Assembly: GCA_029582265.1 (NCBI GenBank)
Contig: CM055817.1
Span: 62,063,152 to 62,127,151, forward strand
DNA: 64,000 bases
Reading direction: 5' to 3'
DNA from: Zoroaster sp. YZ-2022
Taxonomy: Eukaryota; Echinodermata; Asteroidea; Forcipulatida; Zoroasteridae
The position numbers and the translations under genes are program-made. Positions 18,408-63,693 of this stretch are shown in pieces (position 1 is the stretch's first letter; each line of letters begins with the position of its first letter). The notes under the pieces are model-generated. The model did not search any database and was not told the DNA's origin. It was given only the letters and a program-made list of their open reading frames with translations.

Positions 18408-18585
18408 TTTTGCCCTACACTGACATGTGTATAGCACTGTATGCTCGGTGCTTTGAGTGTCTGTGAAAAAATTTCACAGGCGACTAGGGCAGGATTTGAA
18501 CCCACGACCTTCTGCTTACGAGAGCAGACGGCTTAACCTCTCGACCACCTAGCTTGCCCGATGACGATTGGCTGGCTGTATTTCC
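18408..18585 (-). mobile_element. tRNA-derived SINE
   Basis: Minus-strand copy with B box GGTTCAAATCC and A-box region AGGTGGTCGAGAGG, body with CACAGACACTC, as in the other copies. The tail beyond TTTGCCCTACACT is missing or diverged. Confidence 0.75.
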
Positions 18586-36541: not shown

Positions 36542-36899
36542 GTAAGTGTGGATTTTAATTTGTTTTTAACCAGTTGACGTCGGGAATATTTATTTTTTTC
36601 CGGTCCCCCGTGCGGGTTTATTTTCAGTGAAAATCTGAAAAAAAATTATAGCCATTAATAATTTTTTTTGTCAATGAAACTAAGTTCGGACAACCAAATA
36701 AATGCCTTTACTCATTGACATTTCGAGAATTAAATGGCTAGTTTTTTAATTACGGTTGTTTGTTCAGCACAATTAGACCGTTTGCAAGCTCCAATGCAAC
36801 GGCCTCCCAGTAGCGACCAGCGCCCGGTCGAAAAGACGGCATACCTGGAGAGAGATCGAATGCCTCGTAAACAATGGATATAAATCCGTAGTAGTATGT

Positions 36900-37005
36900 A
36901 TGCCGCATCTTGACCTCCTTTGTGGTGGAGGTGGGATTGAGGTGGGATTGAGGTGGGATCCCCTCCACCTCCACCACAAAGGAGGTCAAGATGCGGCATA
37001 CGCAC
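36900..37005. repeat. terminal hairpin palindrome of composite element, copy 1
   Basis: ATGCCGCATCTTGACCTCCT and its inverse AGGAGGTCAAGATGCGGCAT flank a G-rich/C-rich centre (GGAGGTGGGATTGAGG, then CCCCTCCACCTCC). A nearly perfect arm of about 35 bases lies directly inside the element tip. Confidence 0.85.
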
Positions 37006-37614
37006 ACAAAATACATGGGCGCGCGCGCGCCGGGCGCGCGCGTGTTGACTCCCTCCACACAAAACTGCACACAAAATACTTGCCTCCTTCATCTATCTAA
37101 TATATACATATTACATATATACATATATATGGAGGTGTGCAGTTTGTGTGGTGGAGGGAGTAGTGCGCAAGCGCAGCAGCGCTCCTCCACCTCCACAAAC
37201 CGGCTTGTGATGCTCCACACACAAACTGCACACAAAATACATGGGCGCGCGCGCGCCGGGCGCGCGCGTGTTGACTCCCTCCATACAAAACTGCACACAA
37301 AATACTTGCCTCCTTCATCTATCTAATATATACATATTACATATATACATATATATGGAGGTGTGCAGTTTGTGTGGTGGAGGGAGTAGTGCGCAAGCGC
37401 AGCATGCATATTGATGATTTTTCCTTAAGGGAAGTAGAAAGGGGAGGGACAACAACGTACGAAGACAGACAAAAGAACGACTGTACATGAAGCTATTCAA
37501 GTATGATTTGTTAAATTTAATTTTAACACCAACAGCAATCTTTGACATCAATATATTTACAGATGGTTTTTATATTGGTTTTAAATTGGAAAACATTTGA
37601 TAAACTGAAAACAT

Positions 37615-37655
<41 letters not shown>

Positions 37656-37689
37656 TTAAATTCTAACAAATTCGGGCCTTTAGAACATT

Positions 37690-38200
37690 GAGTCTTTACT
37701 CATTCAGTCTTTACTCATTGAGTCTTTACTCATTCAGTCTTTACTCATTCAGTCTTTACTCATTGAGTCTTTACTCATTTCGCTGCTAATTTCGCTGCTC
37801 ATTTACTCATTTACTCATTTCGCTACTCATTTGCTCATTTCGCTGCTCATTTACTCATTTACTCATTTGCTCATTTCGCTACTCATTTCGCTACTCATTT
37901 ACTCATTTCGCTACTCATTTGCTCATTTCGCTATTCATTTGCTAATTTCGCTACTCATTTACTCATTTCGCTGCTCATTTACTCATTTCGCTGCTCATTT
38001 ACTCATTTCGCTACTCATTTGCTCATTTCGCTACTCATTTGCTCATTTCGCTACTCATTTACTCATTTCGCTGCTCATTTACTCATTTCGCTACTCATTT
38101 ACTCATTTCGCTGCTCATTTACTCATTTGAGTCTTTACTCATTCAGTCTTTACTCATTGAGTCTCTTTACTCATTGAATCTTTACTCATTGAATCTTTAC
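37690..38200. repeat. satellite block: 15-bp and 20-bp arrays (left of gene)
   Basis: Order outward to inward: about six 15-bp units (GAGTCTTTACTCATT), then about 18 units of the 20-bp CGCTACTCATTTGCTCATTT, then about five 15-bp units that run into the gene's last codons. Both unit types share the word TACTCATT. The block is mirrored on the other side of the gene. Confidence 0.9.
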
Positions 38201-38915
38201 CATCCTCGTTCTCTTCATCCTCATTTAGTTGAAGTAGCAGTCCGTCAAATTTGGTATGGTGTTTAGGCATTACTCTGTTCAGAGCTTTGTTTACTTCCAT
38301 GCCTTTATTTACTTTTTCTTCGAGATCTTCCGCAATATCCTGATGAGTCCCATTATCTTTCAGATGTAGGTAACTTGACAAAAAATCCTTGTATTTGTTG
38401 AAAAAGATTCGCTTGACTGCCCAAAGGGTTTCCCTATTGGCTTTTTCCTTGGCTTGATCTTCACTCATACCCCCGTTGACGTACTTTTCATATTTTTCAC
38501 ACCACATCTCTTCAGTAGCCACTTTAGCCTCTTCCAACCAGTCTCGAAAAGTGGCATTGTCTTCCAGTTCAGAACTAGACTCATCCTCTTCCGATGATTC
38601 GTCATATTCCACCTCCGTATCGGATTCTGAATCATCTTCCTCGAAATCTTCGTCTTCATCCTGCGTAGATGCAGTTTCACAAGTTTCTATTTCCGAATCT
38701 TCAAATCTACGCTTTTTAACATCCGGTTCAGAATTATCGATGTCTGAATTGTCAGATTGAATAGCTTTAATTTCAGAATCATCGTCAACTTCATCCATTT
38801 TATATTTCTCTTCATTATGTACATGTTCTGCATGCCTCCGTAGGTTATATCTCCGTCCAAAGCTTTTGCCACACTGGTGACAAGCATGGGGTTTGACAGC
38901 AGAAATAACATTCAT
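38154..38915 (-). CDS. C2H2 zinc-finger/acidic protein of composite element, intact (253 aa)
   Basis: Function unknown. Residues 12-33 form one C2H2 finger (C12, C15, H28, H33; CHQCGKSF). A basic KKRR (67-70) could be a nuclear signal. Residues 72-119 are almost all Asp, Glu and Ser. Residues 120-235 look helical (DWLEEAKVATEEM, NGGMSEDQAKEKAN, VMPKHHTKFDGLL). The last 15 residues, GKDSMSKDSMSKETQ, are translated from satellite-like 15-bp repeats. The first ATG is chosen because it lies about 50 bases below a TATA box, with the inverted satellite immediately upstream. There is no transposase, polymerase or integrase motif. A DNA-binding, transcription or accessory role in the element is inference. 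A second, frameshifted copy lies at 52185-52876. Confidence 0.8.
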   Translation of the reverse strand: MNVISAVKPHACHQCGKSFGRRYNLRRHAEHVHNEEKYKMDEVDDDSEIKAIQSDNSDIDNSEPDVKKRRFEDSEIETCETASTQDEDEDFEEDDSESDTEVEYDESSEEDESSSELEDNATFRDWLEEAKVATEEMWCEKYEKYVNGGMSEDQAKEKANRETLWAVKRIFFNKYKDFLSSYLHLKDNGTHQDIAEDLEEKVNKGMEVNKALNRVMPKHHTKFDGLLLQLNEDEENEDGKDSMSKDSMSKETQ

Positions 38916-38964
38916 GTTGACTCTCTGATGCTTAATCTCCGATTGACAAGAAACGGAAGAAATA

Positions 38965-38975
38965 GTTTATATATA
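38965..38975 (-). promoter_or_regulatory. TATA box of the zinc-finger gene
   Basis: On the minus strand TATATATAAAC lies 50 bases upstream of the ATG and about 10 bases inside the satellite border, so promoter plus leader occupy only about 70 bases. It is conserved in copy 2 at 52926-52936. Confidence 0.6.
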
Positions 38976-38984
38976 GGCCTATAA

Positions 38985-39445
38985 CTACTCATTTTGGAAT
39001 GAGTAAAGACTGAATGAGTAAAGACTCAATGAGTAAAGAGACTCAATGAGTAAAGACTGAATGAGTAAAGACTCAATGAGTAAAGACTCAAATGAGTAAA
39101 TGAGTAGCGAAATGAGCAAATGAGTAGCGAAATGAGCAAATGAGTAGCGAAATGAGCAAATGAGCAGCGAAATGAGCAAATGAGCAGCGAAATGAGCAAA
39201 TGAGCAGCGAAATGAGCAAATAAACAGCGAAATGAGCAAATGAGTAAATGAGTAGCGAAATGAGTAGCGAAATGAGCAAATGAGTAGCGAAATGAGCAAA
39301 TGAGTAAATGAGTAAATGAGCAGCGAAATGAGCAAATGAGTAGGTAAATGAGTAAATGAGCAGCGAAATGAGTAAAGACTCAATGAGTAAAGACTCAATG
39401 AGTAAAGACTCAATGAGTAAAGACTGAATGAGTAAAGACTCAATG
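38985..39445. repeat. satellite block, inverted (right of gene)
   Basis: Mirror image of 37690-38200: 15-bp units AATGAGTAAAGACTC, then 20-bp units GCGAAATGAGCAAATGAGTA, then 15-bp units again, ending in ACTCAATGTTCTAAAGGCCC. The two blocks could pair over several hundred bases. Confidence 0.9.
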
Positions 39446-39492
39446 TTCTAAAGGCCCCGAATTTGTTAGAATTTGTTAGAATTTAAAATAAC

Positions 39493-39527
<35 letters not shown>

Positions 39528-39810
39528 ATGTTTTCAGTTTATCAAATGTTTTCCAATTTAAAACCAATATAAAAACCATCTGTAAATATATTGATGTCAA
39601 AGATTGCTGTTGGTGTTAAAATTAAATTTAACAAATCATACTTGAATAGCTTCATGTACAGTCGTTCTTTTGTCTGTCTTCGTACGTTGTTGTCCCTCCC
39701 CTTTCTACTTCCCTTAAGGAAAAATCATCAATATGCATGCTGCGCTTGCGCACTACTCCCTCCACCACACAAACTGCACACCTCCATATATATATGTATA
39801 TATGTAATTA
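39446..39810. repeat. inner inverted arm of composite element, copy 1
   Basis: Inverse of 37380-37690: GGCCCCGAATTTGTTAGAAT, an (AAT)n run, AACCATCTGTAAATATATTG, GACAGACAAAAGAACGACTG on the other strand, ending in CACTACTCCCTCCACCACAC. Short open frames here appear in both arms and in copy 2 and are not conserved as protein. Confidence 0.85.
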
Positions 39811-39814
39811 TACA

Positions 39815-40550
39815 GATATAACATGGTTCGAGGGTGGACAGTCGATATTAGCTCCCCGAGGTATTGGAAGTTGAGAAACTAGTTCCCGAGGCGAAGCCGA
39901 GGACTAGTTCTCAACTTCCAATACCGAGGGAGCTAATATCGACTGTCCACCTCGCCATGTTATATCTGTTTTACTATACCTCATACATATTCAGTTGCCA
40001 TTACAATAGAGAAGCAAGGGGAAAAGGCAATATAACCACTGTGAAATAAAACGCGAATTTACATTTACGTGTGCCGCCATCTTTCATGTGTATGTATGTA
40101 GCTAGCTAGCTAGCTAAGGCGATGTTCGCGCGTGCGTACTACTGTTCCCCGCTGGCATGTTCCCGGATGCGGGGAACAGATCGTTGGGACTATTTCCCCG
40201 CCGGGACTGTTCCCCGATGCGACAGTCGACTACGCACTACTGCGCATGCGTATTTACCCTGTGCGTGAATACTCGCGGACGCGGGGTAAACAGCAAAAAT
40301 AGCATCTGGCACGTGACGGTGAATGGACCAGTGAGAATTCGGCTCTCGATCATGAATATGTATGAGGTATAGTAAGATACAAATATAACATGGTTTGAGG
40401 GTGGACAGTCGATATTAGCTCCCCGAGGTATTGGAAGTTGAGAAAACTGGTTCCCGAGGCGAAGCCGAGGGAACCAGTTCTCAACTTCAATACCGAGGGG
40501 AGCTAATATCGACTCCGCTCGAAATAAACCATGTTATATTTGTTTTACTA
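39815..40550. repeat. alternating palindromes A-B-A
   Basis: Unit A (39815-39968 and 40380-40548) is a palindrome of about 150 bases: ATATAACATGG, GTCGATATTAGCTCCC, GGAAGTTGAGAAAC, loop GAGGCGAAGCCGAGG, and inverse. Unit B (39970-40374) is bounded by ACTATACCTCATACATATT and AATATGTATGAGGTATAGT. B contains repeated GTTCCC(C/G)G words and (AGCT)n. The B-A pair also occurs inside copy 2 of the composite element at 50296-50857, in the opposite orientation. Confidence 0.8.
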
Positions 40551-41071
40551 TACCTCATACATATTCACAATATTCTCTAGTTTGGCATCACTGAGCTTGG
40601 TAAATTAAAACGCGACATTTACGTGTGCCGCCATCTTTTCATGTGTATGTACGTAGCTAGCTAGCTAGCTAGCTGCGCTGATAAAGGCGATGTTCGCGCG
40701 TGCGTACTACTGTTCCCCGCTGCTGGCATGTTCCCGGATGCAGGGAACAGATCGTTGGGACTATTTCCCCGCCGGTGTCACGGTCTCAGCTATCCGGCGT
40801 GCTCAGCTATCCGGATGACCAAATATGGTAAAATTACGTCATGCTATGTCTGCGCACAGCGTACGAAAGTAGTCCATTTTAGTGCCGTGCTGAGTCGTGT
40901 ACGTATCCGTGTACGTACGTACACACACTTGCTGGAACTGTCATGGCGGCCTCCACGAGCAGTGACTACAGCGTGCTGATATGCCCTTACCGTCATCCGG
41001 ATAGCTGAGCACGCCGGATAGGCTGAGACCGTGACTACAGCGTGCTGAAATGCCCGGCTCGTCATCGGAAT
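40551..41071. repeat. second unit B with inserted foldback, cut by gap
   Basis: Starts TACTATACCTCATACATATT like unit B. At 40777-41034 it holds a 258-base foldback with ends GTCACGGTCTCAGCTATCCG and CGGATAGGCTGAGACCGTGAC, containing CGTGCTCAGCTATCCGGATG and inverse. The sequence stops at the gap. Confidence 0.75.
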
Positions 41072-41571
41072 NNNNNNNNNNNNNNNNNNNNNNNNNNNNN
41101 NNNNNNNNNNNNNNNNNNNNNNNNNNNNNNNNNNNNNNNNNNNNNNNNNNNNNNNNNNNNNNNNNNNNNNNNNNNNNNNNNNNNNNNNNNNNNNNNNNNN
41201 NNNNNNNNNNNNNNNNNNNNNNNNNNNNNNNNNNNNNNNNNNNNNNNNNNNNNNNNNNNNNNNNNNNNNNNNNNNNNNNNNNNNNNNNNNNNNNNNNNNN
41301 NNNNNNNNNNNNNNNNNNNNNNNNNNNNNNNNNNNNNNNNNNNNNNNNNNNNNNNNNNNNNNNNNNNNNNNNNNNNNNNNNNNNNNNNNNNNNNNNNNNN
41401 NNNNNNNNNNNNNNNNNNNNNNNNNNNNNNNNNNNNNNNNNNNNNNNNNNNNNNNNNNNNNNNNNNNNNNNNNNNNNNNNNNNNNNNNNNNNNNNNNNNN
41501 NNNNNNNNNNNNNNNNNNNNNNNNNNNNNNNNNNNNNNNNNNNNNNNNNNNNNNNNNNNNNNNNNNNNNNN
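41072..41571. other. assembly gap (500 N)
   Basis: Exactly 500 unknown bases, the conventional length for a gap of unknown size. It follows directly after palindromic sequence, the likely cause of the break. Open frames that appear to cross it are meaningless. Confidence 0.99.
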
Positions 41572-49712: not shown

Positions 49713-50034
49713 GTACCTTTACCAACTTCTTATCAAATAAACTTTCGAATAATTATTCCGGTAATTTTGTAATTAAGTAATTGCAAATGGTGTTATATTC
49801 CACTTAACCATGGTAATATCGTGTAAAACTGTTTAAGTTTTCACAGATTACACACTAGACCTAAGCCAGGGCATTAAGTTAAGCTCTAATAAAGTTACAC
49901 ATTCTCGAAAACCTCACACGCAGCATGTGAACATCTTACGAAAGGTTTGTATGTTCCTCAGACGTTATAAGCAGGTGAAGATCCAGTGTCTCGAATTAAA
50001 AGGAGGACACACAAGATATATACCACCAGTAGTA

Positions 50035-50165
50035 TGTATGCCGCAAACCTACCTGCTTTGTGGAGAGGGATTGAGGAGGGAATTGAGGAGGGATTGAGGA
50101 GGACTGAGGAGGACCTCCTCAATTCCCTCCTCAATCCCTCCACAAAGCAGGTAGATTTGCGCCAT
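50035..50165. repeat. left terminal hairpin palindrome
   Basis: GCAAACCTACCTGCTTTGTG and inverse CACAAAGCAGGTAGATTTGC flank a centre of GGATTGAGGAGGGAATTGAGG and inverse. Its partner is at 54435-54557. Confidence 0.85.
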
Positions 50166-50295
50166 ACTCAAATCGGATGCTGCGCGCGCGCGGGCACGTC
50201 TGGGCGCGCGCGTGACTCCCTCCACACAAAATCCCTCCACACAAAACTGCACACAAGTTCCTCCCCTTGCCTCCTTCATCTATCTAATATATACA

Positions 50296-50857
50296 TTTAC
50301 TATACCTCATACATATTAATGATCGAGAGCCGAATTCTCACTGGTCCATTCACCGTCACGTGCCAGATGCTATTTTTGCTGTTTACCTCGCGTCCGCGAG
50401 TATTCACGCACAGGGTAAATACGCATGCGCAGTAGTGCGTAGTAGACTGTCGCATCGGGGAACAGTCCCGGCGGGGAAATAGTCCCAACGATCTGTTCCC
50501 TGCATCCGGGAACATGCCAGCGGGGAACAGTAGTACGCACGCGCGAACATCGCCTTAGCTAGCCAGCTACGTACATACACATGAAAAAGATGGCGGCACA
50601 CGTAAATGTAAATTCGCGTTTTATTTCACAGTGGTTATATTGCCTTTCCCCTTGCTTCTTATTGTAATGGCAACTGAATATGTATGAGGTATAGTAAAAC
50701 AGATATAACATGGTTTATTTCGGTGGACAGTCGATATTAGCTCCCTCGGTATTGGAAGTTGAGAAACTAGTTCCTCGGCTTCGCCTCGGGAACCAGTTTC
50801 TCAACCCAATACCGAGAGCCATATCGACCGTCCACCCTCAAACCATGTTATATCTGT
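50296..50857. mobile_element. B-A palindrome pair inserted in the left arm
   Basis: B (50296-50696) runs ACTATACCTCATACATATT to AATATGTATGAGGTATAGT. A (50702-50857) runs ATATAACATGG to CCATGTTATATCTG. They interrupt an AT-rich run; the right arm (54290-54320) shows the uninterrupted form. They are the inverse of 39815-40550. Confidence 0.75.
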
Positions 50858-51189
50858 ATAATATATATATAGCGCAAGCGCATGCCAAACTGGACGTATA
50901 AGACATTTGTGTGGTGGAGGAGTAGTGCAAGCGCAGCATGCATATTGATGATTGTTCCTTAAGGAAGTAGGGAGGGACAACAACGTACGAAGACAGACAA
51001 AGAACGACTGTACATGAAGCTATTCAAGTATGATTTGTTAAATTTAATTTTAACAGCAATCTTTGACATCAATATATATTAACAGATGGTTTTTATATTG
51101 GTTTTAAATTGGAAAACATTTGATAAACTGAAAACATTAAGTATTATTATTATTGTTATTTTAAATTCTAACAAATTCGGGGCCTTTAG

Positions 51190-52165
51190 AACATTGAGTC
51201 TTTACTCATTGAGTCTTTACTCTTTGAGTCTCTACTCTTTGAGTCTCTACTCTTTGAGTCTCTACTCTTTGAGTCTCTACTCTTTGAGTCTCTACTCTTT
51301 GAGTCTCTACTCTTTGAGTCTCTACTCTTTGAGTCTCTACTCTTTGAGTCTCTACTCTTTGAGTCTCTACTCTTTGAGTCTCTACTCTTTGAGTCTCTAC
51401 TCTTTGAGTCTTTACTCTTTGAGTCTTTACTCTTTGAGTCTTTACTCTTTGAGTCTTTACTCTTTGAGTCTTTACTCTTTGAGTCTTACTCATTTCGCTA
51501 CTCATTTACTCATTTCCTACTCATTTACTCATTTCGCTACTCATTTACTCATTTCGCTACTCATTTACTCATTTCGCTACTCATTTGCTCATTTCGCTGC
51601 TCATTTACTCATTTCGCTACTCATTTACTCATTTCGCTACTCATTTGCTCATTTCGCTACTCATTTACTCATTTCGCTACTCATTTGCTCATTTCGCTAC
51701 TCATTTACTCATTTCGCTGCTCATTTGCTCATTTCGCAACTCATTTGCTCATTTTGCTGCTCATTTACTCATTTCGCTACTCATTTACTCATTTCGCTGC
51801 TCATTTACTCATTTGAGTCTTTACTCATTGAATCTTTACTCATTGAGTCTTTACTCATTCAGTCTTTACTCATTGAGTCTCTTCATTGCGCTGCTCATTT
51901 GCTCATTTCGCTACTCATTTGCTCATTTCGCTACTCATTTACTCATTTCGCTACTCATTTGCTCATTTCGCTACTCATTTACTTATTTCGCTACTCATTT
52001 GCTCATTTCGCTGCTCATTTACTCATTTCGCTACTCATTTACTCATTTCGCTGCTCATTTACTCATTTGAGTCTTTACTCAGTGAATCTTTACTCATTGA
52101 GTCTTTACTCATTCAGTCTTTACTCATTGAGTCTCTTTACTCATTGAATCTTTACTCATTGAATC
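51190..52165. repeat. satellite block left of gene copy 2
   Basis: Outermost are about 19 nearly identical 15-bp units of the variant GAGTCTCTACTCTTT, then 20-bp units, 15-bp units, a second 20-bp block and final 15-bp units. The long open frames through it arise because both unit lengths can stay open without stops and are not genes. Confidence 0.9.
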
Positions 52166-52184
52166 TTTACCATCCTCGTTCATT

Positions 52185-52876
52185 TAGTTGAAGTAGTAGT
52201 CCGTAAAATTTGGTATGGTGTTTAGGCATTACTCTGTTCAGAGCTTTGTTTACTTCCATGCCTTTATTTACTTTTTCTTCGAGATCTTCCGCAATATCCT
52301 GATGAGTCCCATTATCTTTTTCAGATGTAGGTAACTTGACAAAAAATCCTTGTATTTGTTGAAAAAGATTCGCTTGACTGCCCAAAGAGTTTTCCTATTG
52401 GCTTTTTCTTTGGCTTGATCTTCACTCATACCCCCGTTGACGTACTTTTCATATTTTTCACACCACATCTCTTCAGTAGCCACTTTAGCCTCTTCCAACC
52501 AGTCTCGAAAAGTGGCATTGTCTTCCAGTTCAGAACTAGACTCATCCTCTTCCGATGATTCGTCATATTCCACCTCCGTATCGGATTCTGAATCATCTTC
52601 CTCGAAATCTTCGTCTTCATCCTGCGTAGATTCAGTTTCACAAGTTTCTATTTCCGAATCTTCAAATCTACGCTTTTTAACATCCGGTTTAGAATTATCG
52701 ATGTCTGAATTGTCAGATTGGATAGCTTTAATTTCAGAATCATCGTCAACTTCATCCATTTTAGATTTCTCTTCATTATGTACATGTTCTGCATGCCTCC
52801 GTAGGTTATATCTCCGTCCAAAGCTTTTGCCGCACTGGTGACAAGCATGGGGTTTGACAGCAGAAATAACATTCAT
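52185..52876 (-). pseudogene. C2H2 zinc-finger/acidic protein, frameshifted copy
   Basis: Collinear with the intact gene at 38154-38915 through the finger, acidic tract and most of the helical region. Relative to that copy it has two extra T in a T run at about 52316-52321, shifting the frame after SSYLHLK, and an 11-bp deletion near 52180 removing part of the DEENEDG stretch. Other differences are a mix of silent (several third-position) and replacing changes (for example Glu to Lys twice, Asp to Tyr). The TATA box is kept. The T-run change could be an assembly error, the deletion less likely so. Confidence 0.8.
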
Positions 52877-52949
52877 GTTGACTCTCTGATGCTTAATCTC
52901 CGATTGACAAGAAACGGAAGAAACAGTTTATATATGAGCCTATAACTAC

Positions 52950-53960
52950 TCATTTCGGAATGAGTAAAGACTGAATGAGTAAAGACTCAATGAGTAAAAG
53001 ATTCAATGAGTAAAGACTCAAATGAGTAAATGAGCAGCGAAATGAGTAAATGAGTAGCGAAATGAGTAAATGAGCAGCGAAATGAGCAAATGGTAGCGAA
53101 ATGAGTAAATGAGTAGCGAAATGAGCAAATGAGTAGCGAAATGAGTAAATGGTAGCGAAATGAGCAAATGAGTAGCGAAATGAGCAAATGAGTAGCGAAA
53201 TGAGTAAATGAGTAGCGAAATGAGTAAATGAGCAGCACAATGAAGAGACTCAATGAGTAAAGACTGAATGAGTAAAGACTCAATGAGTAAAGATTCAATG
53301 AGTAAAGACTCAAATGAGTAAATGAGCAGCGAAATGAGTAAATGAGAAGCGAAATGAGTAAATGAGCAGCGAATGAGCAAATGAGTAGCGAAATGAGCAA
53401 ATGAGTAGGCGAAATGAGTAAATGAGTAGCGAAATGAGCAAATGGAGTGGCGAAATGGTAAATGAGTGCGAAATGAGAAGAAATGAGCAAATGAGTAGCG
53501 AAATGAGCAAATGAGTGAGCGAAATGAGTAAATGGTAGTGAAATGAGCAAATGAGTGGCGAAATGAGTAAATGGTGGCGAAATGAGCAAATGAGTAGCGA
53601 AATGAGTAAATGAGTGCGAAATGAGTAAATGAGTAGCGAAATGAGTAAGACTCAAGAGTAAAGACTCAAAGAGTAAAGACTCAAATAGTAAAGACTCAAG
53701 AGTGAGACTCAAGAGTAAAGACTCAAAGAGTAAAGACTCAAAGAGTAGAGACTCAAAGAGTAGAGACTCAAGAGTAGAGACTCAAAGTGAGACTCAAAGA
53801 GTAGAGACTCAAAGAGTAGAGAGACTCAAAGAGTAGAGACTCAAGAGTGTAGAGACTCAAAGAGTAGAGACTCAAAGAGTAGAGACTCAAAGAGTAAAGA
53901 CTCAAAGAGTGAGACTCAAAGAGTAAAGACTCAAAGAGTAAAGACTCAATGAGTAAAGAC
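52950..53960. repeat. satellite block, inverted, right of gene copy 2
   Basis: Mirror of 51190-52165 with the same unit types, but with many single-base losses (for example AATGGTAGCG, AATGAGTGCG, CTCAAGAGT), far more than on the left side. Confidence 0.85.
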
Positions 53961-54434
53961 TCAATGTTCTAAAGGCCCCGAATTTGTTAGAAATTAAAAT
54001 AACAATAATAATAATACTTAATGTTTTCAGTTTATCAAATGTTTTCCAATTAAAACCAATAAAACCATCTGTTAATATATTGATGTCAAAGATTGCTGTT
54101 AAAATTAAATTTAACAAATCATACTTGAATAGCTTCATGTACAGTCGTTCTTTTGTCTGTCTTCGTACGTTGTTGTCCCTCCCCTTTCTACTTCCCTTAA
54201 GGAAAAATCATCAATATGCATGCTGCGCTTGCGCACTACTCCCTCCACCACACAAATGTCTTATACGCTCCAGTTTGGCATGCGCTTGCGCTATATATAT
54301 ATGTATATATTAGATAGATGAAGGAGGCAAGGGCAGGAACTTGTGTGCAGTTTTGTGTGGAGGGATTTTGTGTGGAGGAGTCACGCGCGCGCCCAGACGT
54401 GCCCGCCCGCGCCCAGCATCCGATTTGAGAAAGG

Positions 54435-54557
54435 CGCAAATCTACCTGCTTTTGTGGAGGGATTGAGGAGGGAATTGAGGAGGTCCTCCTCAGTCCTCCT
54501 CAATCCCTCCTCAATTCCCTCCTCAATCCCTCCACAAAGCAGGTAGGTTTGCGGCAT
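54435..54557. repeat. right terminal hairpin palindrome
   Basis: CAAATCTACCTGCTTTTGTG...CACAAAGCAGGTAGGTTTG, with centre GGAGGTCCTCCTCAGTCC. Inverse of 50035-50165. Confidence 0.85.
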
Positions 54558-54759
54558 ACATACTACTACCACCTTTGCTTCCCAGATCGTTTGTGTCATA
54601 ATAGGTACATGTCATGAGCAAATTTCATATATATTCTTTAAAAAATAATCTTCATTTTCGTGAATTTTTTACCCGAAACATTGTCTGACACCTTTCAACA
54701 GGGCATGGAATCTGTTTCCAAGATTAAGATGAACACAGTGACTGATCAAAACTATACTT

Positions 54760-54992
54760 TGGTGAAATTCTTGCGTCGGGAGATAAACAATTGATTTAAT
54801 TTTGCCCTACACCGACGTGTGTATAGCACTGTATACTCAGTGCTTTCCGAGTGTCTGTGAAAAAACTACACAGGCGACTCGGGCGGGATTCGAACCCACG
54901 ACCTCCTGCTTACTAGTGCAGACGTCTTAACCTCTCGACCACCGAGCTTGCCCGATGACGATTGGCCGGCTAGAATCCTATATAGCAGCGGG
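54760..54992 (-). mobile_element. tRNA-derived SINE, first of a tandem pair
   Basis: Complete on the minus strand: GGATTCTAGCCGGCCAATCG, A-box region CTCGGTGGTCGAGAGG, B box GGTTCGAATCC, body, tail ending CGACGCAAGAATTTCACC. Best-preserved copy in the window. Confidence 0.85.
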
Positions 54993-55010
54993 TTCCGCGA
55001 TATATATAGA

Positions 55011-55200
55011 TTGGTGAAATTCTTGCGTCGGGAGATAAACAATTGATTTAATTTTGCCCTACACCGACGTGTGTATAGCACTGTATACTCAGTGCTTTCC
55101 GAGTGTCTGTGAAAAAACTACACAGGCGACTCGGGCGGGATTCGAACCCACAACCTCCTGCTTATACTAGTGCAGACGTCTTAACCTCTCGACCACCGAC
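55011..55200 (-). mobile_element. tRNA-derived SINE, second of a tandem pair, head truncated
   Basis: Nearly identical to the preceding copy over tail, body and B box; the head is cut at GGTGGTCGAGAGG. Probably a tandem duplication or insertion into the tail of its neighbour. Confidence 0.8.
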
Positions 55201-55424
55201 TCATTTATGCAACAGCAACGGTAATATCACCTTATCACGTGGGTATTACTTTCAATCACTGAGTTAATCTAAAACTGGCACTCCGATTCCATGCCCTGAT
55301 GATCGTGACGATATTGCCCCTTTAAACTTCTGACCCTTTCAATCTCTGAACCATCTTTGGCTGGTTTCACTGTAGGCTAAACAAATAGAATCCGACTGGC
55401 CAAAGTGATGGACCCAGGGGTTAA

Positions 55425-58400
55425 CCCTTTCGATCCCACGGGCTCTAAAAAGAGCCTTTGTTGTGATACGCTTCCTTCCCGTGGGCTCTAAAAGGTGCCG
55501 GGAATCAGCATGCCCTTGACGACCACGGCGACTTAAATCACCATCTGAAAATGCTTGAGTGGTTTTGGGGGTTGGCGCCCTCTATTGACAGGAATGAAGT
55601 GTATAAAAGTTTATGAAAAGAAAAGTGCGTCACTTTGCGGTTCCCGGTGCTAGCGTCCACTCGCTTCCACAACGGTCAGTTTAATTTAGTTGCAATCATA
55701 ATGGAAACGGACATAAATGATGGCATTTTGGCTGAGATTTTGGCAGACAGTGGCTCAGAATCAGATGACGAAGTAACGGATGACGACAGCACTATAGAAG
55801 AACAAATTCCAGCGGAATTCGTTGAACTTGAAGAGGTAGGCCAAAATCACAGTAAAAATGAATAACTAATAACAGTTAACGTTACTCTTCCTGGCCCAAT
55901 GCAAATTAACGTAATTCACTTATTTTCCTAGGCTATAGCGTAAATAGCGTTACAACTGTTGGAGTTGAGTAATGTAAATTTAGAAAATGGATCCTTTAAT
56001 AGGATTGACCAATCCCCACCCCCTGGACTGGGTCAAAAAAGTCAAGTGAAAATGTACAATTATTAGTAGTTTGTTGGGAATGTTGGGGTAATATTTGTAT
56101 TCATTGAAACAGCAAGTTGATGTATAGATATAGCATAGAAATTTTAACATTCACCCATAGCCGGTCGTGCTGTTTAGCGTTAACAGGCTGAAAATGCACT
56201 CTTAGTCTCAAGCTTCCATATAAGTCATATAACACAAGAAGTTGTGGGAATTCACTTTCACAATCCCACATTAAAACAACAATTTATCGGCAACGAGTTT
56301 TGGAGAGTGGATGGAAGTATATTTCTTTTCTCAGCACAATATTCATTTTGCGCATGACCCCCTGTGGCCTGTGTGCACATGCAGCAAAGTAGCATTGAGA
56401 TATTGTATTTACAAATGTATGACCGAGATTAATCCTCCTTTGCCTTGTTTTTCTGTTGCAGCCGACCTACCAAGGTGATAGCCGACCGAGATCAAGGAGG
56501 ACGACAGGAAAGTTAGATTTCCGATCTGGTTGGGAACGACGAGACCATTACGAGTGTGGGACTGTGCAGTTCACTGGAAATTCTGGCCCCACCGGCGACT
56601 TTGCCACACTGTCGGCAGTAGAGATCTTCAAGCTGTATTTTTGTCAACTTGTGTGGAATATGCTCGTCGACGAGAGGACTAATCGCTATGCGCAGCAAAC
56701 AATAGAATCAATTCCTGATGAACAATTCTCCTGGCACCCAACCAACATTCCAGAAATGATGGCATTTGTGGCACTTCTCATTGCTATGGGCATAAACAAA
56801 TCCTCTCAATACAAGATGTACTGGTCGACATCTGAAATTCTTCACATCCCATTCTATCCGTCGATCATGTCCCGTAATCGGTTCAGTTCAATTCTTCGGT
56901 TCCTCCACATCTCAAATAACCAAATTCCTCGTAGAGCCTTGGCTAAACAGGACAAACTTTCAAAGTTCGGCCCTTGATAGAAGTCCTCGTCCAGAAGTTT
57001 CTCAACCTGTATAACCCTGCGCAGAATCTGTCTCCAGACGAGAGTATGTTGAAATTCAAGGGACGCTTGAGTTTTGTTCAGTACATGCCTAACAAACCTA
57101 TCAAACGGGGTATTAAAGCCTTCTCCCTGAACGAGTCCAAAACAGGATACACGTGTGCTTGGAAACTGTACACAGGAGCCAACGACACCCAAACTGTTTG
57201 TGATGCAGACGTAGATTTCAATTCATCAGACTGCCATCCACCAAACCCAACAGTTGCAGGAAAAGTCGTCATTGATCTGGTCCATGGACTTGAGAATAAG
57301 GGACACGTAATATATTGTGATAATTACTATACTAGCCCAGCCCTTGTAGCTAAACTTGCTAAACTAGGATTCGGATGTTGTGGAACTGTTCGTTACACTA
57401 CACAGGAATACCCCAGGCCGCAAACCCAAAACCATAAAATGAAGAAAGGAGATGACCCATTTTTTTGGTGAAAGGTGGGCAATTGTGTATCGTTTGGCAA
57501 TACAAAAATCTGTAACACTTTTTAACTAATGTAGGCAACACTGATTTGTCCAAAAAGCAAATTCGGTGTAATAAAAGCACAAGTGGATTTTGTGATGTTA
57601 TGAAGCCCAATTGTATTGAAGATTACAACAAAAACATGGGTGGAACTGATCTTGCCAACCAATGTTTTCAGTACTACAATCATACACACAGAAGCTTGAA
57701 ATGGTGGAAAAGAGTTTTTTCCATATGCTGAATATCTGTATTGTCAATAGCAGAGTAATATTCACCAGCATAGCAGGGAACAAAAATGTCAGTAATCTTG
57801 ATTTTCGTATAGGGATTGTACAGGGCTTGCTGTTGGGTTGGGAACGTAACGCAACAAGTCAATTGAGATACCATATTCCTATTGAGTTGACAGGGCAACA
57901 GCACTATCCTGGCAAAACCCCAATGGAAAGAAACGCGACTGCATTGTTTGCAGTAACCGAAAATTAGGCAGGCGAAAACAAACAAAGATGATCTGTAAAC
58001 AATGTACTCAACCTATGTGCATAGTTCCTTGCTTTGAGAAATACCACATCACTTGATTGTAAATCTATACTATTTGCCTTCAAACCCCCCCCCCCCCGTT
58101 CAATGTTGGGAAAGGTCAGACAAGCCGCAGATTACAGTCCAAACCAACATTGAATTGGGGAAATGAGGTTGTTAGCATGGATTGTGATGTATGTACACTG
58201 AATGGTTCATTTCCAAGTAGAAAACAAACAAAAAATCCCCAAAAATCTCATCCAAGTTAATATTTTTCACATGGAAAAGAAATCTTATACATGTACCGTA
58301 TTTGCATGAAATATCACCCATTTGTATTACTTTTCTTAAGTGTAAATACTGATCTAAATATTTCATTGTTTTGCTTTTACACTTAAAAATCTGCACAATA

Positions 58401-61328: not shown

Positions 61329-63693
61329 ATGAGCACCAGTGGGCCCCCACCCAAGAAACTGAAGCAAGCCAAATTAAGCTTTGCCCCAGTAAGCAAAGAG
61401 AGTAGCTCTAAAGACACCCCTGATGACTTCGGCATCCTTAAGTCCGTTCCACAGCGTGGAAGCAGTGAAAGCTCAGACGACTGCAATAAACAAATTGATT
61501 CTGCCACAGCTGTCATAATAGAAGGGTCTAACTGTACAGGTTTCACAAATAAGTACGACATTGGAAACTACAGTAAAGCGCACGGGAGGAAATTGCTAGA
61601 CGATGAAACAAAGTTGGCCCTCATTACAGACTGCTGGGTACCTGATTCCTCCTTCAACTTCCCACAGTGTGCAAATTCTAGGAGACGATTTCAACATAGC
61701 TGGCTAAAACGATACAACTGGTTGGCATACAGCGATGCAGAGAAGGGTGTTTTCTGCAAACCATGTCTCATCTTTGCCCTGAATCTGCCGGAGCACACGG
61801 CAATCAAATATTAAAAACCTTAGTAAGCACTCCCTTTAACAAATACAAAGACGCAATTGAAGTCTTCAACAAGCACAACAGTGCAAAGTATCATGCTGAT
61901 GCTGTCAACTCATGTCAGATGTTTCTCAAGGTTGTGACCAACAAGGTACCAAGCATTGACAATCAACTTGACAACACAAGACAACAACAAATAATAACCA
62001 ATAGACAGCGTATTAGACCTATGATTGAAACTGTGCTCTTTTTGGGAAGGCAGGAAATTTCATTTCGTGGTCACCGAGACAGCGGCAGTATCGCCAACAT
62101 CGCCAACACATCCACGGAAAATGATGGAAACTTCAGGTCAGCCCTTCGTTTCCGCATCAACGCTGGAGACAATTATCTGAAGAGGCACATAGAAACTGCA
62201 GGAGGAAACGCCATGTACACAAGTTGGAACACACAAAATGAGATCATCAACACCGTTGGAGATATTATCTCTGAAAAGATAGTTGATGAAGTGAAGGATG
62301 CGAAATACTTCAGTGTATTGGTGGATGAGACAACAGACTGTTCCACAAAAGAACAAATGAGCCTATCAGTGAGATATGTGCATGATGGCAAAAGTATGTG
62401 AGAAGTTTTGACTTTTGTAACAGTGAATGATCCTCACAGGACACGGACTTGCAAGCATACTTGACATACTCCATGAGAAAACTCTAGATCCCATGAATAT
62501 GCGTGGTCAAGGTTATGATGGGGCTTCGGCTATGAGCGGGCAATTTAATGGAGTCCAAGCATGCATAAGAGAGAAGAACCCACTCGCAGTGTACACACAT
62601 TGTGCAAGTCATGTATTAAATCTGGTTGTCTCTCATGGAAGTAACTTACCTACAATACTAAACACGATCAGCACCATTCAGGAGATTTGTTCGTTTTTTG
62701 GAAACGTCTGAAAAAACTATGCACCACAAGATGGGTTGAGAGGCACGAGGCTGTTAACGTCTTCTATGAACTCTACGTCCCTATAGAGGAGGCCCTTGAG
62801 TATGTGTCACATAATGGTGACAGATCATCGTCGCAAAGAGCGTCCACATTGCTTACTGCTCTCAGATCTTCAGTATTTATCGTGGCCACAACCATACTAA
62901 ACCGGCTCAGCGGAGTCCTCCTACCCTTATCCCGGAAATTGCAGTCACCTACATGTGACCTCGTTGGATGCGTTAGACTTGTGCGTGATGTGCAGCAGAT
63001 CATCAAGCAAATGAGGGAAAACAGTGAAGAAGAGTTTGGACGGTTGTTTAGTGACGCAACGAAGTTGGCTGATGATAGACGGCGTCATACGCAAACCACG
63101 GACAGCATCTCGTCAAACAGCTAGAGAAAATCATCCATCTCAATCAGCTGAAGAATACTTCAGGGTATCAATGTTTGGCATCTACATTGATCAATTGCTA
63201 GTGAACTCAGCACAAGGTTTTCAGTCCACTTTGAAAGATGCGCCAAACTACAGTACATATTGCCTGCATACTGCAATGATACCAACTTCAATCAACTCCA
63301 GGACATTGTGCAAATGTACGCACAAGACATCGAATCTGAAGGCATAGTGAGAGGCGAGTTTGATATGTGGTGTGCGAGGTGGGGAAAAATGCTGTCGGTA
63401 ATGTACCATCTACACCTACAGAGACTCTGACTTCAGTACCAGGATTGGCGGACCTGTACCCGAATATACACACACTTATCACGATATTTGCAGTCATCCC
63501 TGCTACCTCAGCTACTGCAGAACGCACCTTCGGTACCCTTCGTCGCCTTAAATCCTACTTGAGGTCAACCGCGAGCAACCAGCGTCTGACAGGCCTTGCT
63601 TTGATGGCTATACATAGAGCAATAGATGTGGACATCGATGACGTCATAAATCGGATGGCACTAAAGCGTCGTAGATTGGACTTTTCACTTTAA
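61329..63693 (+). pseudogene. ZMYM1-like hAT transposase, multiply frame-broken
   Basis: Starts MSTSGPPPKKLKQAKLSF. A TTF-type zinc-binding region follows (RFQHSWLKRYNWL, GVFCKPCLIFA). The catalytic core has SVLVDETTDCS (first Asp), RGQGYDGASAMSGQFNG (second Asp) and THCASHVLNLVV. The C-terminus has the hAT dimerisation block ATSATAERTFGTLRRLKSYL and ends RRRLDFSL. Frame changes occur near 61775, 62399, 62697 (in a T6 run), 63080, 63230 and 63385, with only short overlaps, so the full protein of about 780 residues can be followed but not translated. It uses a DDE-type cut-and-paste mechanism. Confidence 0.85.

What the first reader, a model, noticed from the sequence alone, without database searches (positions are those of the whole stretch)
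50028..54567. Undescribed composite element: 6-bp target duplication, AGTAGT tips, hairpins, mirrored satellites and one C2H2/acidic gene
Seen: perfect ACCACC duplication, identical inverted tips, terminal hairpins, nested inverted arms and mirrored satellite blocks around a single short gene with its own TATA box. Known: Polinton/Maverick elements make 6-bp duplications and start with 5'-AG, but are normally 15-20 kb and encode polymerase, integrase and capsid proteins. Inference: this is either a strongly reduced Polinton-related passenger or a separate, undescribed element class whose only protein is the finger/acidic protein.
Basis: partly seen in the sequence, partly recalled or inferred. 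Interest (0 to 1): 0.88.

Follow-up and report, generated by a model that had tools for sequence, protein, structure and literature searches.

The report
Small one-gene transposon with Maverick-type ends
A 4.5-kb animal transposon carries the end signature of the giant virus-like Maverick (Polinton) elements but none of their genes, only one small gene from an unnamed family of single-zinc-finger proteins, so it looks like a parasite of Mavericks with a gene of its own.

Summary
50028-54567 is one insertion: ACCACC duplication, AGTAGT...ACTACT tips, tip hairpins, and 1.6-kb inverted arms that include the satellites, around a 0.8-kb core with one gene. The left arm carries a separate 0.56-kb insert. 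A second copy (36890 to about 39809) shares tip, arms and core; its gene is open (253 aa), its right end is lost. The gene of the named copy is frameshifted.

The tip bases and 6-bp duplication are those reported for vertebrate Mavericks, where the repeated AGT is thought to serve protein-primed replication. No Maverick gene is present. The protein has one C2H2 finger, an acidic linker and a confidently predicted five-helix domain without a convincing solved match. It belongs to a family of over a hundred proteins, nearly all unnamed. By a published finger code it should read GAG, the most over-represented triplet in 7 of 7 satellite blocks tested.

Best reading: a non-autonomous, foldback-shaped satellite of Mavericks, using their integrase and perhaps polymerase, with its own arm-binding protein. 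Membership in Mavericks fails (size, genes). The whole-genome test could not be run (tool unreachable), so the 6-bp duplication rests on one copy and no Maverick was shown in this genome.

The parts
50022..50027 (.). target duplication ACCACC, left
   Evidence: exactly 6 bp
54568..54573 (.). target duplication ACCACC, right
50028..50033 (+). end motif (AGT)2, left tip
   Evidence: same motif as vertebrate Mavericks
54562..54567 (-). end motif (ACT)2, right tip
50036..50167 (+). left tip hairpin (GAGG-rich stem)
   Evidence: z -12.8
54435..54553 (-). right tip hairpin
   Evidence: z -14.6
50028..50296 (+). outer part of left inverted arm
   Evidence: 268 of 276 aligned bases identical to the right arm
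50297..50860 (.). separate insert in the left arm (two MITE-like units end to end); not part of the element proper; edges good to a few bases
   Evidence: absent from the right arm
50861..51189 (+). inner part of left arm
   Evidence: 337 of 340 aligned bases identical to the right arm
51190..52170 (+). left satellite block (15-bp and 20-bp units rich in GAG/CTC), part of the inverted arm
52171..52958 (-). unique core with the gene
52268..52876 (-). ORF of this copy, 202 aa: C2H2 finger, acidic linker, helical domain; frame shifted near its end relative to copy 2
52927..52934 (-). TATATAAA box of the gene
   Evidence: also in copy 2
52959..53964 (-). right satellite block, part of the inverted arm
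53965..54567 (-). right arm, inner and outer parts, uninterrupted
36890..39809 (+). second copy, same orientation; left tip and hairpin kept, right end lost beyond an insert at about 39810 and an N gap (41072-41571)
36898..37001 (+). tip hairpin of copy 2: different stem sequence, outer 28 pairs all formed
38154..38915 (-). open 253-aa ORF of copy 2
38966..38973 (-). TATA box of the copy 2 gene

Best explanation
A non-autonomous DNA element that lives off Mavericks (Polintons) and carries one gene of its own. Shown: a 6-bp duplication, (AGT)2 ends, long near-identical inverted arms with tip hairpins and GAG-rich tandem arrays, and a single gene with a TATA box whose protein family is conserved. 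Inferred, step by step: (1) a Maverick integrase cuts and joins the ends, giving the 6-bp duplication; (2) the repeated AGT lets a Maverick protein-primed polymerase start at the tips and jump back, so that the element can be copied as linear DNA; (3) the element's own protein binds the GAG arrays, and perhaps the hairpin stems, through its single finger, brings the two ends together through its helical domain, and recruits the helper or activates transcription through its acidic linker. Step 1 is the best supported, step 2 is plausible, step 3 rests on the finger code and the arrays.
For: Ends and duplication equal the reported Maverick signature; the chance that a random end fits one of the three reported motifs is about 1 in 1,800 at even base use. 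3 of 3 ends seen carry AGTAGT. The paper gives jumping-back in protein-primed replication as the expected use of the repeats. No enzyme: Pfam finds no family above its cut-off in the protein (best zf-C2H2, 21.7 bits, cut-off 25.2), nor in ten other mechanical ORFs of the cores and arms of the two copies (best E 0.004, below cut-off); the other ORFs of 60 aa or more in the core overlap the gene in other frames. A gene family of its own: 66, 113 and 59 matches in three searches (E limits 0.001, 0.01, 0.001; one search scored a capped list of candidates); the helical domain is better conserved than finger and linker (mean majority fraction 0.72, 0.66, 0.42 over 30 sequences). Finger contacts: R at -1 in 63, N at 3 in 38, R at 6 in 69 of 70 proteins with a recognisable finger, of 115 examined. 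R-N-R modules (RSDNLVR) stand for GAG in PMC5260015 (passages). GAG/CTC ranks 1 of 32 triplets, against base-composition expectation, in 7 of 7 satellite blocks tested in both copies, but 10th in the core, 28th in the inner arm, 21st in host DNA. Repeat units inside the elements reach 0.2 GAG/CTC per base, 24 of 30 rows above the highest of 26 rows elsewhere in the window (0.087; several rows describe one array). Stem pairing is kept between copies: 5 of 28 outer stem pairs change on both sides and pair in both.
Against: The duplication is seen at one copy only; copy 2 has lost its right end. No Maverick was shown in this genome or window. No relative was found in viral contigs, so nothing links this gene to a Maverick. 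The finger match is not blind (I had seen the repeats first); position 2 is Y here, D in the published module; by plain count GAG/CTC ranks only 1 to 4 in the satellite blocks; base-shuffled units give P 0.004 and 0.02 for the 15-bp units but 0.18 for the 20-bp unit and 0.26 for the hairpin unit; in the hairpins GAG ranks 2nd (copy 1) and 7th (copy 2). Four of the five double changes in the stem lie within five positions and may be one event. Between the two copies the gene shows 4 silent and 4 replacement changes in 186 codons, no evidence of selection by itself. One arm has the insert and the other does not, so the arms are not copied from each other at every round.
Confidence: 0.55

Rival explanations
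1. An ordinary internal-deletion derivative of a Maverick: it kept the Maverick's own arms and one of its accessory genes, and has no biology of its own.
For: Vertebrate Mavericks have accessory regions with diverse ORFs beside the core modules, and arms up to 1,447 bp.
Against: No relative of the protein was met in pattern scans of the viral contigs, though these may hold few animal Mavericks; the gene stays recognisable over great distances (domain identity mean 0.53, lowest 0.24 among 61 sequences), which is not expected of a stranded gene.
Confidence: 0.18
2. A foldback element of another cut-and-paste superfamily with 6-bp duplications (such as IS3EU/GingerRoot, or an unnamed one), with the gene as accessory DNA-binding protein.
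For: Arm architecture is like foldback elements such as Galileo and Tetris; in Galileo the arm repeats hold transposase-binding sites. IS3EU and GingerRoot also make 6-bp duplications.
Against: IS3EU ends are TA..TA, GingerRoot TA..TA or TG..CA, Ginger2 starts TGTNR; Tetris makes 8-10 bp duplications. None fits AGTAGT with 6 bp.
Confidence: 0.17
3. A new class of autonomous element in which the finger/helical protein itself is the recombinase.
For: It is the only credible gene; its helical domain has invariant E, N, W, Y and F residues over 61 sequences and no convincing match among solved structures.
Against: A 127-residue all-helical model does not have the layout of RNase H-like, HUH or tyrosine recombinases (recalled).
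Confidence: 0.07

Closest known systems
Polinton/Maverick elements
   Same: (AGT)2//(ACT)2 end motif, 6-bp duplication, long inverted repeats
   Different: 4.5 kb instead of 12.7-24.6 kb; no polymerase, integrase, ATPase, capsid or protease gene found; arms make up most of the element
Foldback-like elements: Galileo (Drosophila), Tetris (D. virilis), TU (sea urchin; details recalled)
   Same: Long arms with tandem repeats, short middle; in Galileo the arm repeats hold binding sites of the transposase's THAP domain
   Different: Duplications of 8-10 bp in Tetris, which lacks conserved ORFs; P-type transposase in Galileo; a C2H2/acidic gene is not mentioned in the parts I read
IS3EU / GingerRoot
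   Same: 6-bp duplications
   Different: TA..TA or TG..CA ends and a DDE transposase
Satellites with own genes (virophages, transpovirons; recalled)
   Same: A small element that would borrow a larger virus-like element's enzymes while keeping a gene of its own
   Different: Those exploit giant viruses; no capsid or polymerase gene here

Membership tests
Polinton/Maverick | 6-bp target duplication | tested here: met
   ACCACC, 1 of 1 copy with both ends
Polinton/Maverick | (AGT)2//(ACT)2 or another reported end motif | tested here: met
   3 of 3 ends seen
Polinton/Maverick | long terminal inverted repeats | tested here: met
   1.6-kb arms
Polinton/Maverick | size of 12.7-24.6 kb (intact vertebrate elements) | tested here: not met
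   4,540 bp
Polinton/Maverick | polymerase, integrase, ATPase, capsid and protease genes | tested here: not met
   no Pfam family above cut-off in the gene or in ten other ORFs of cores and arms
Polinton/Maverick | mobilised by a Maverick integrase | not testable with these tools
   whole-genome search did not complete (15 attempts, last)
Foldback-like (Galileo/Tetris) | long arms with internal tandem repeats | tested here: met
Foldback-like (Galileo/Tetris) | 8-10 bp duplication (Tetris) | tested here: not met
   6 bp; Tetris figure
IS3EU/GingerRoot | TA..TA (or TG..CA) ends | tested here: not met
   AG..CT ends; reference figure
IS3EU/GingerRoot | DDE transposase gene | tested here: not met
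   none by Pfam

The most novel reading that the evidence does not exclude
Animals harbour a widespread class of satellites of Mavericks: small foldback elements that are replicated and integrated by the virus-like helper, and whose only gene encodes a single-finger, five-helix protein that binds GAG arrays in the arms and steers the helper to the satellite. This would be the animal counterpart of virophage-type parasitism, perhaps with a new protein fold.
Probability: 0.3. Interest if true: 0.88.

Novelty: new variant of a known kind. Interest (0 to 1): 0.62.

Why it matters
A Maverick-like ancestor is one hypothesis for the origin of a large group of DNA viruses (start of the abstract of PMC10328495 in the listing), yet no satellite of Mavericks with its own gene turned up in the library searches made here (of the 53 papers I saw only the 25 listed). 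A family with readable ends, a defined gene and predicted binding sites would let one test whether Mavericks act in trans in living animals. The protein family, conserved but without a Pfam name or a convincing solved match, is worth a description in its own right.

Tried and rejected

Matches that I do not count as family: multi-finger proteins matched through the finger (P0109, P0110, P0112-P0114, P0163), and the Holothuria proteins P0111, P0154, P0161, which share finger and acidic part but show no helical domain by eye. Alignment A4 held P0111 and P0115, so some weak matches may have been drawn by those. Of the 115 proteins at hand, 45 had no recognisable finger by my pattern and were left out of the contact counts; the 70 kept include P0111, P0114 and P0115. 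Of all 166 proteins fetched, 94 hold my rough motif for the start of the helical domain.
Full report
What is there. The window looks like animal DNA (SUEL lectin and CUB domains and a transposase of the DDE_Tnp_1_7 type by Pfam; the species is not known to me). At 50028-54567 stands one clean insertion, flanked by ACCACC on both sides. Its two ends read AGTAGTATGTATGCCGC inward, exactly, and the same 17 bases occur once more in the window at 36890. The arms are one long inverted repeat: tip, hairpin, GC-rich stretch, AT-rich stretch, a well kept 0.33-kb part, then the satellites, then a unique core of 788 bp. The core holds one gene on the minus strand with a TATA box about 50 bp before its ATG. 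Other ORFs in cores and arms give no Pfam match above cut-off (ten ORFs tested).

A second copy starts at 36890. It has the same tip, arms, satellites and core in the same orientation, 98.2% identical in the core (772 of 786 aligned bases, 13 gap columns), and an open 253-aa frame. Its right end is lost behind an insert at about 39810 and an assembly gap. The frame of the first copy is shifted near its end and gives 202 aa. So neither copy in the window is complete in every part, and the 6-bp duplication rests on the first copy.

The tips. Each of three tips folds into a hairpin far better than its shuffles (z -12.8, -13.1, -14.6). Between the copies the stem differs in sequence but stays paired: of 28 outer stem pairs, 5 changed on both sides and pair in both copies, 2 changed on one side and pair only in copy 2. 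Four of the five lie within five positions and may be one event. The palindrome, rather than its letters, seems to be what is kept.

What the ends say. A study of vertebrate Mavericks, of which I read section 7 and passages, reports conserved end motifs, the commonest being (AGT)2//(ACT)2, together with perfect 6-bp duplications, and explains the repeats by the jumping-back step of protein-primed replication in adenoviruses and tectiviruses (PMC8097293). Both features stand here letter for letter. Retrovirus-type integrases of Polinton-like viruses typically make 6-bp duplications (PMC12220804, passages). IS3EU and GingerRoot also make 6 bp but end in TA..TA or TG..CA (PMC10045372, passages). 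Ginger2 starts TGTNR (PMC2836005, passages). Hence a Maverick-type machinery is the best guess for what moved this element, although no Maverick gene is in it and none was shown in this genome.

The gene. Three searches of 5.8 billion proteins gave 66, 113 and 59 matches (a few are finger-only matches, listed under Tried and rejected). Two named relatives hold helical-domain sequence: P0053 of Patiria miniata (47% identity, lacking a middle stretch of the domain) and P0147 of Pinctada imbricata (26% to the first sequence of the distant profile, found only through it). Two clusters list 38 and 69 member sequences on 3 and 1 contigs (P0116, P0118), which may but need not mean a repeated gene. 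The protein has one C2H2 finger (Pfam 21.7 bits, below the 25.2 cut-off), a linker that is 44% D and E, and a domain of five helices predicted at pLDDT 92.3 and pTM 0.74 from 61 sequences. That domain is the best conserved part and has no convincing match among solved structures; the whole model, with a less certain linker, has none among viral models. It shows no sign of being an enzyme.

A binding model. The contact residues of the finger are R, Y, N, R at -1, 2, 3, 6. Modules with R, N, R at -1, 3, 6 (RSDNLVR) stand for GAG in a table of PMC5260015 (passages). Against base composition GAG/CTC is the most over-represented of the 32 strand-symmetric triplets in 7 of 7 satellite blocks tested in both copies (by plain count it ranks 1 to 4), with 9.3-12.2 per 100 bp against 2.0 in host DNA, 2.8 in the core and 0.9 in the inner arm. 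Of 26 repeat units elsewhere in the window none exceeds 0.087 GAG/CTC per base; 24 of 30 rows inside the elements do (several rows describe the same array). The match is suggestive only: I had seen the repeats first; unit shuffles give P 0.004 and 0.02 for the 15-bp units but 0.18 for the 20-bp unit and 0.26 for the hairpin unit; and in the hairpin of copy 2 GAG is 7th. The layout has a tested parallel in Galileo, where repeats in foldback-like arms carry binding sites for the transposase's own DNA-binding domain (PMC3688188, abstract and discussion).

How it may work. A Maverick elsewhere in the genome supplies integrase and perhaps polymerase; the ends fit both. The element's own protein binds the arrays, pairs the ends and recruits the helper or activates transcription. 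The first step is supported by the ends; the rest is inference. The alternatives are a plain deletion derivative of a Maverick with an accessory gene, a foldback of another superfamily, and a new recombinase; each is weighed in its field.

Limits. The host genome could not be searched: the genome search did not answer in 15 attempts (last). No DNA around any homologue could be read. The statement that no gene-bearing Maverick satellite turned up in print rests in an open-access library (listings; passages of one of the three papers); Kapitonov and Jurka 2006 is not held, and Repbase was not available.

Noticed in passing
50297-50860 and about 39810-40775: Two MITE-like units, one with 21-bp ends TTACTATACCTCATACATATT and one around ACAGATATAACATGG, stand end to end in copy 1 and as an alternating series in copy 2, at about the same arm position but on opposite arms.
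   Followed up: partly
37002-37178 and 37228-37404: The outer left arm of copy 2 holds a 177-bp direct duplication, 99.4% identical, start to start 226 bp; I did not see one in copy 1.
   Followed up: partly
54873-55202: Two tRNA-like units (Rfam tRNA, 45.2 bits each, odd anticodons) in tandem about 250 bp apart, with single ones at 18481 and 25171: probably a tRNA-derived SINE.
   Followed up: partly
56423-57468: Broken transposase with DDE_Tnp_1_7 matches in two overlapping frames; piggyBac-type by recall.
   Followed up: no
61700-62398: ORF with a DUF4371 match, as in hAT-like transposase genes (recalled).
   Followed up: no
P0157, P0160: Distant relatives with one finger, acidic linker and a C-terminal part of another pattern; the layout may be a wider superfamily.
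   Followed up: partly
40790-41021: 30-bp perfect inverted repeat, arms 172 bp apart, just before the assembly gap: another unassigned repeat unit.
   Followed up: no
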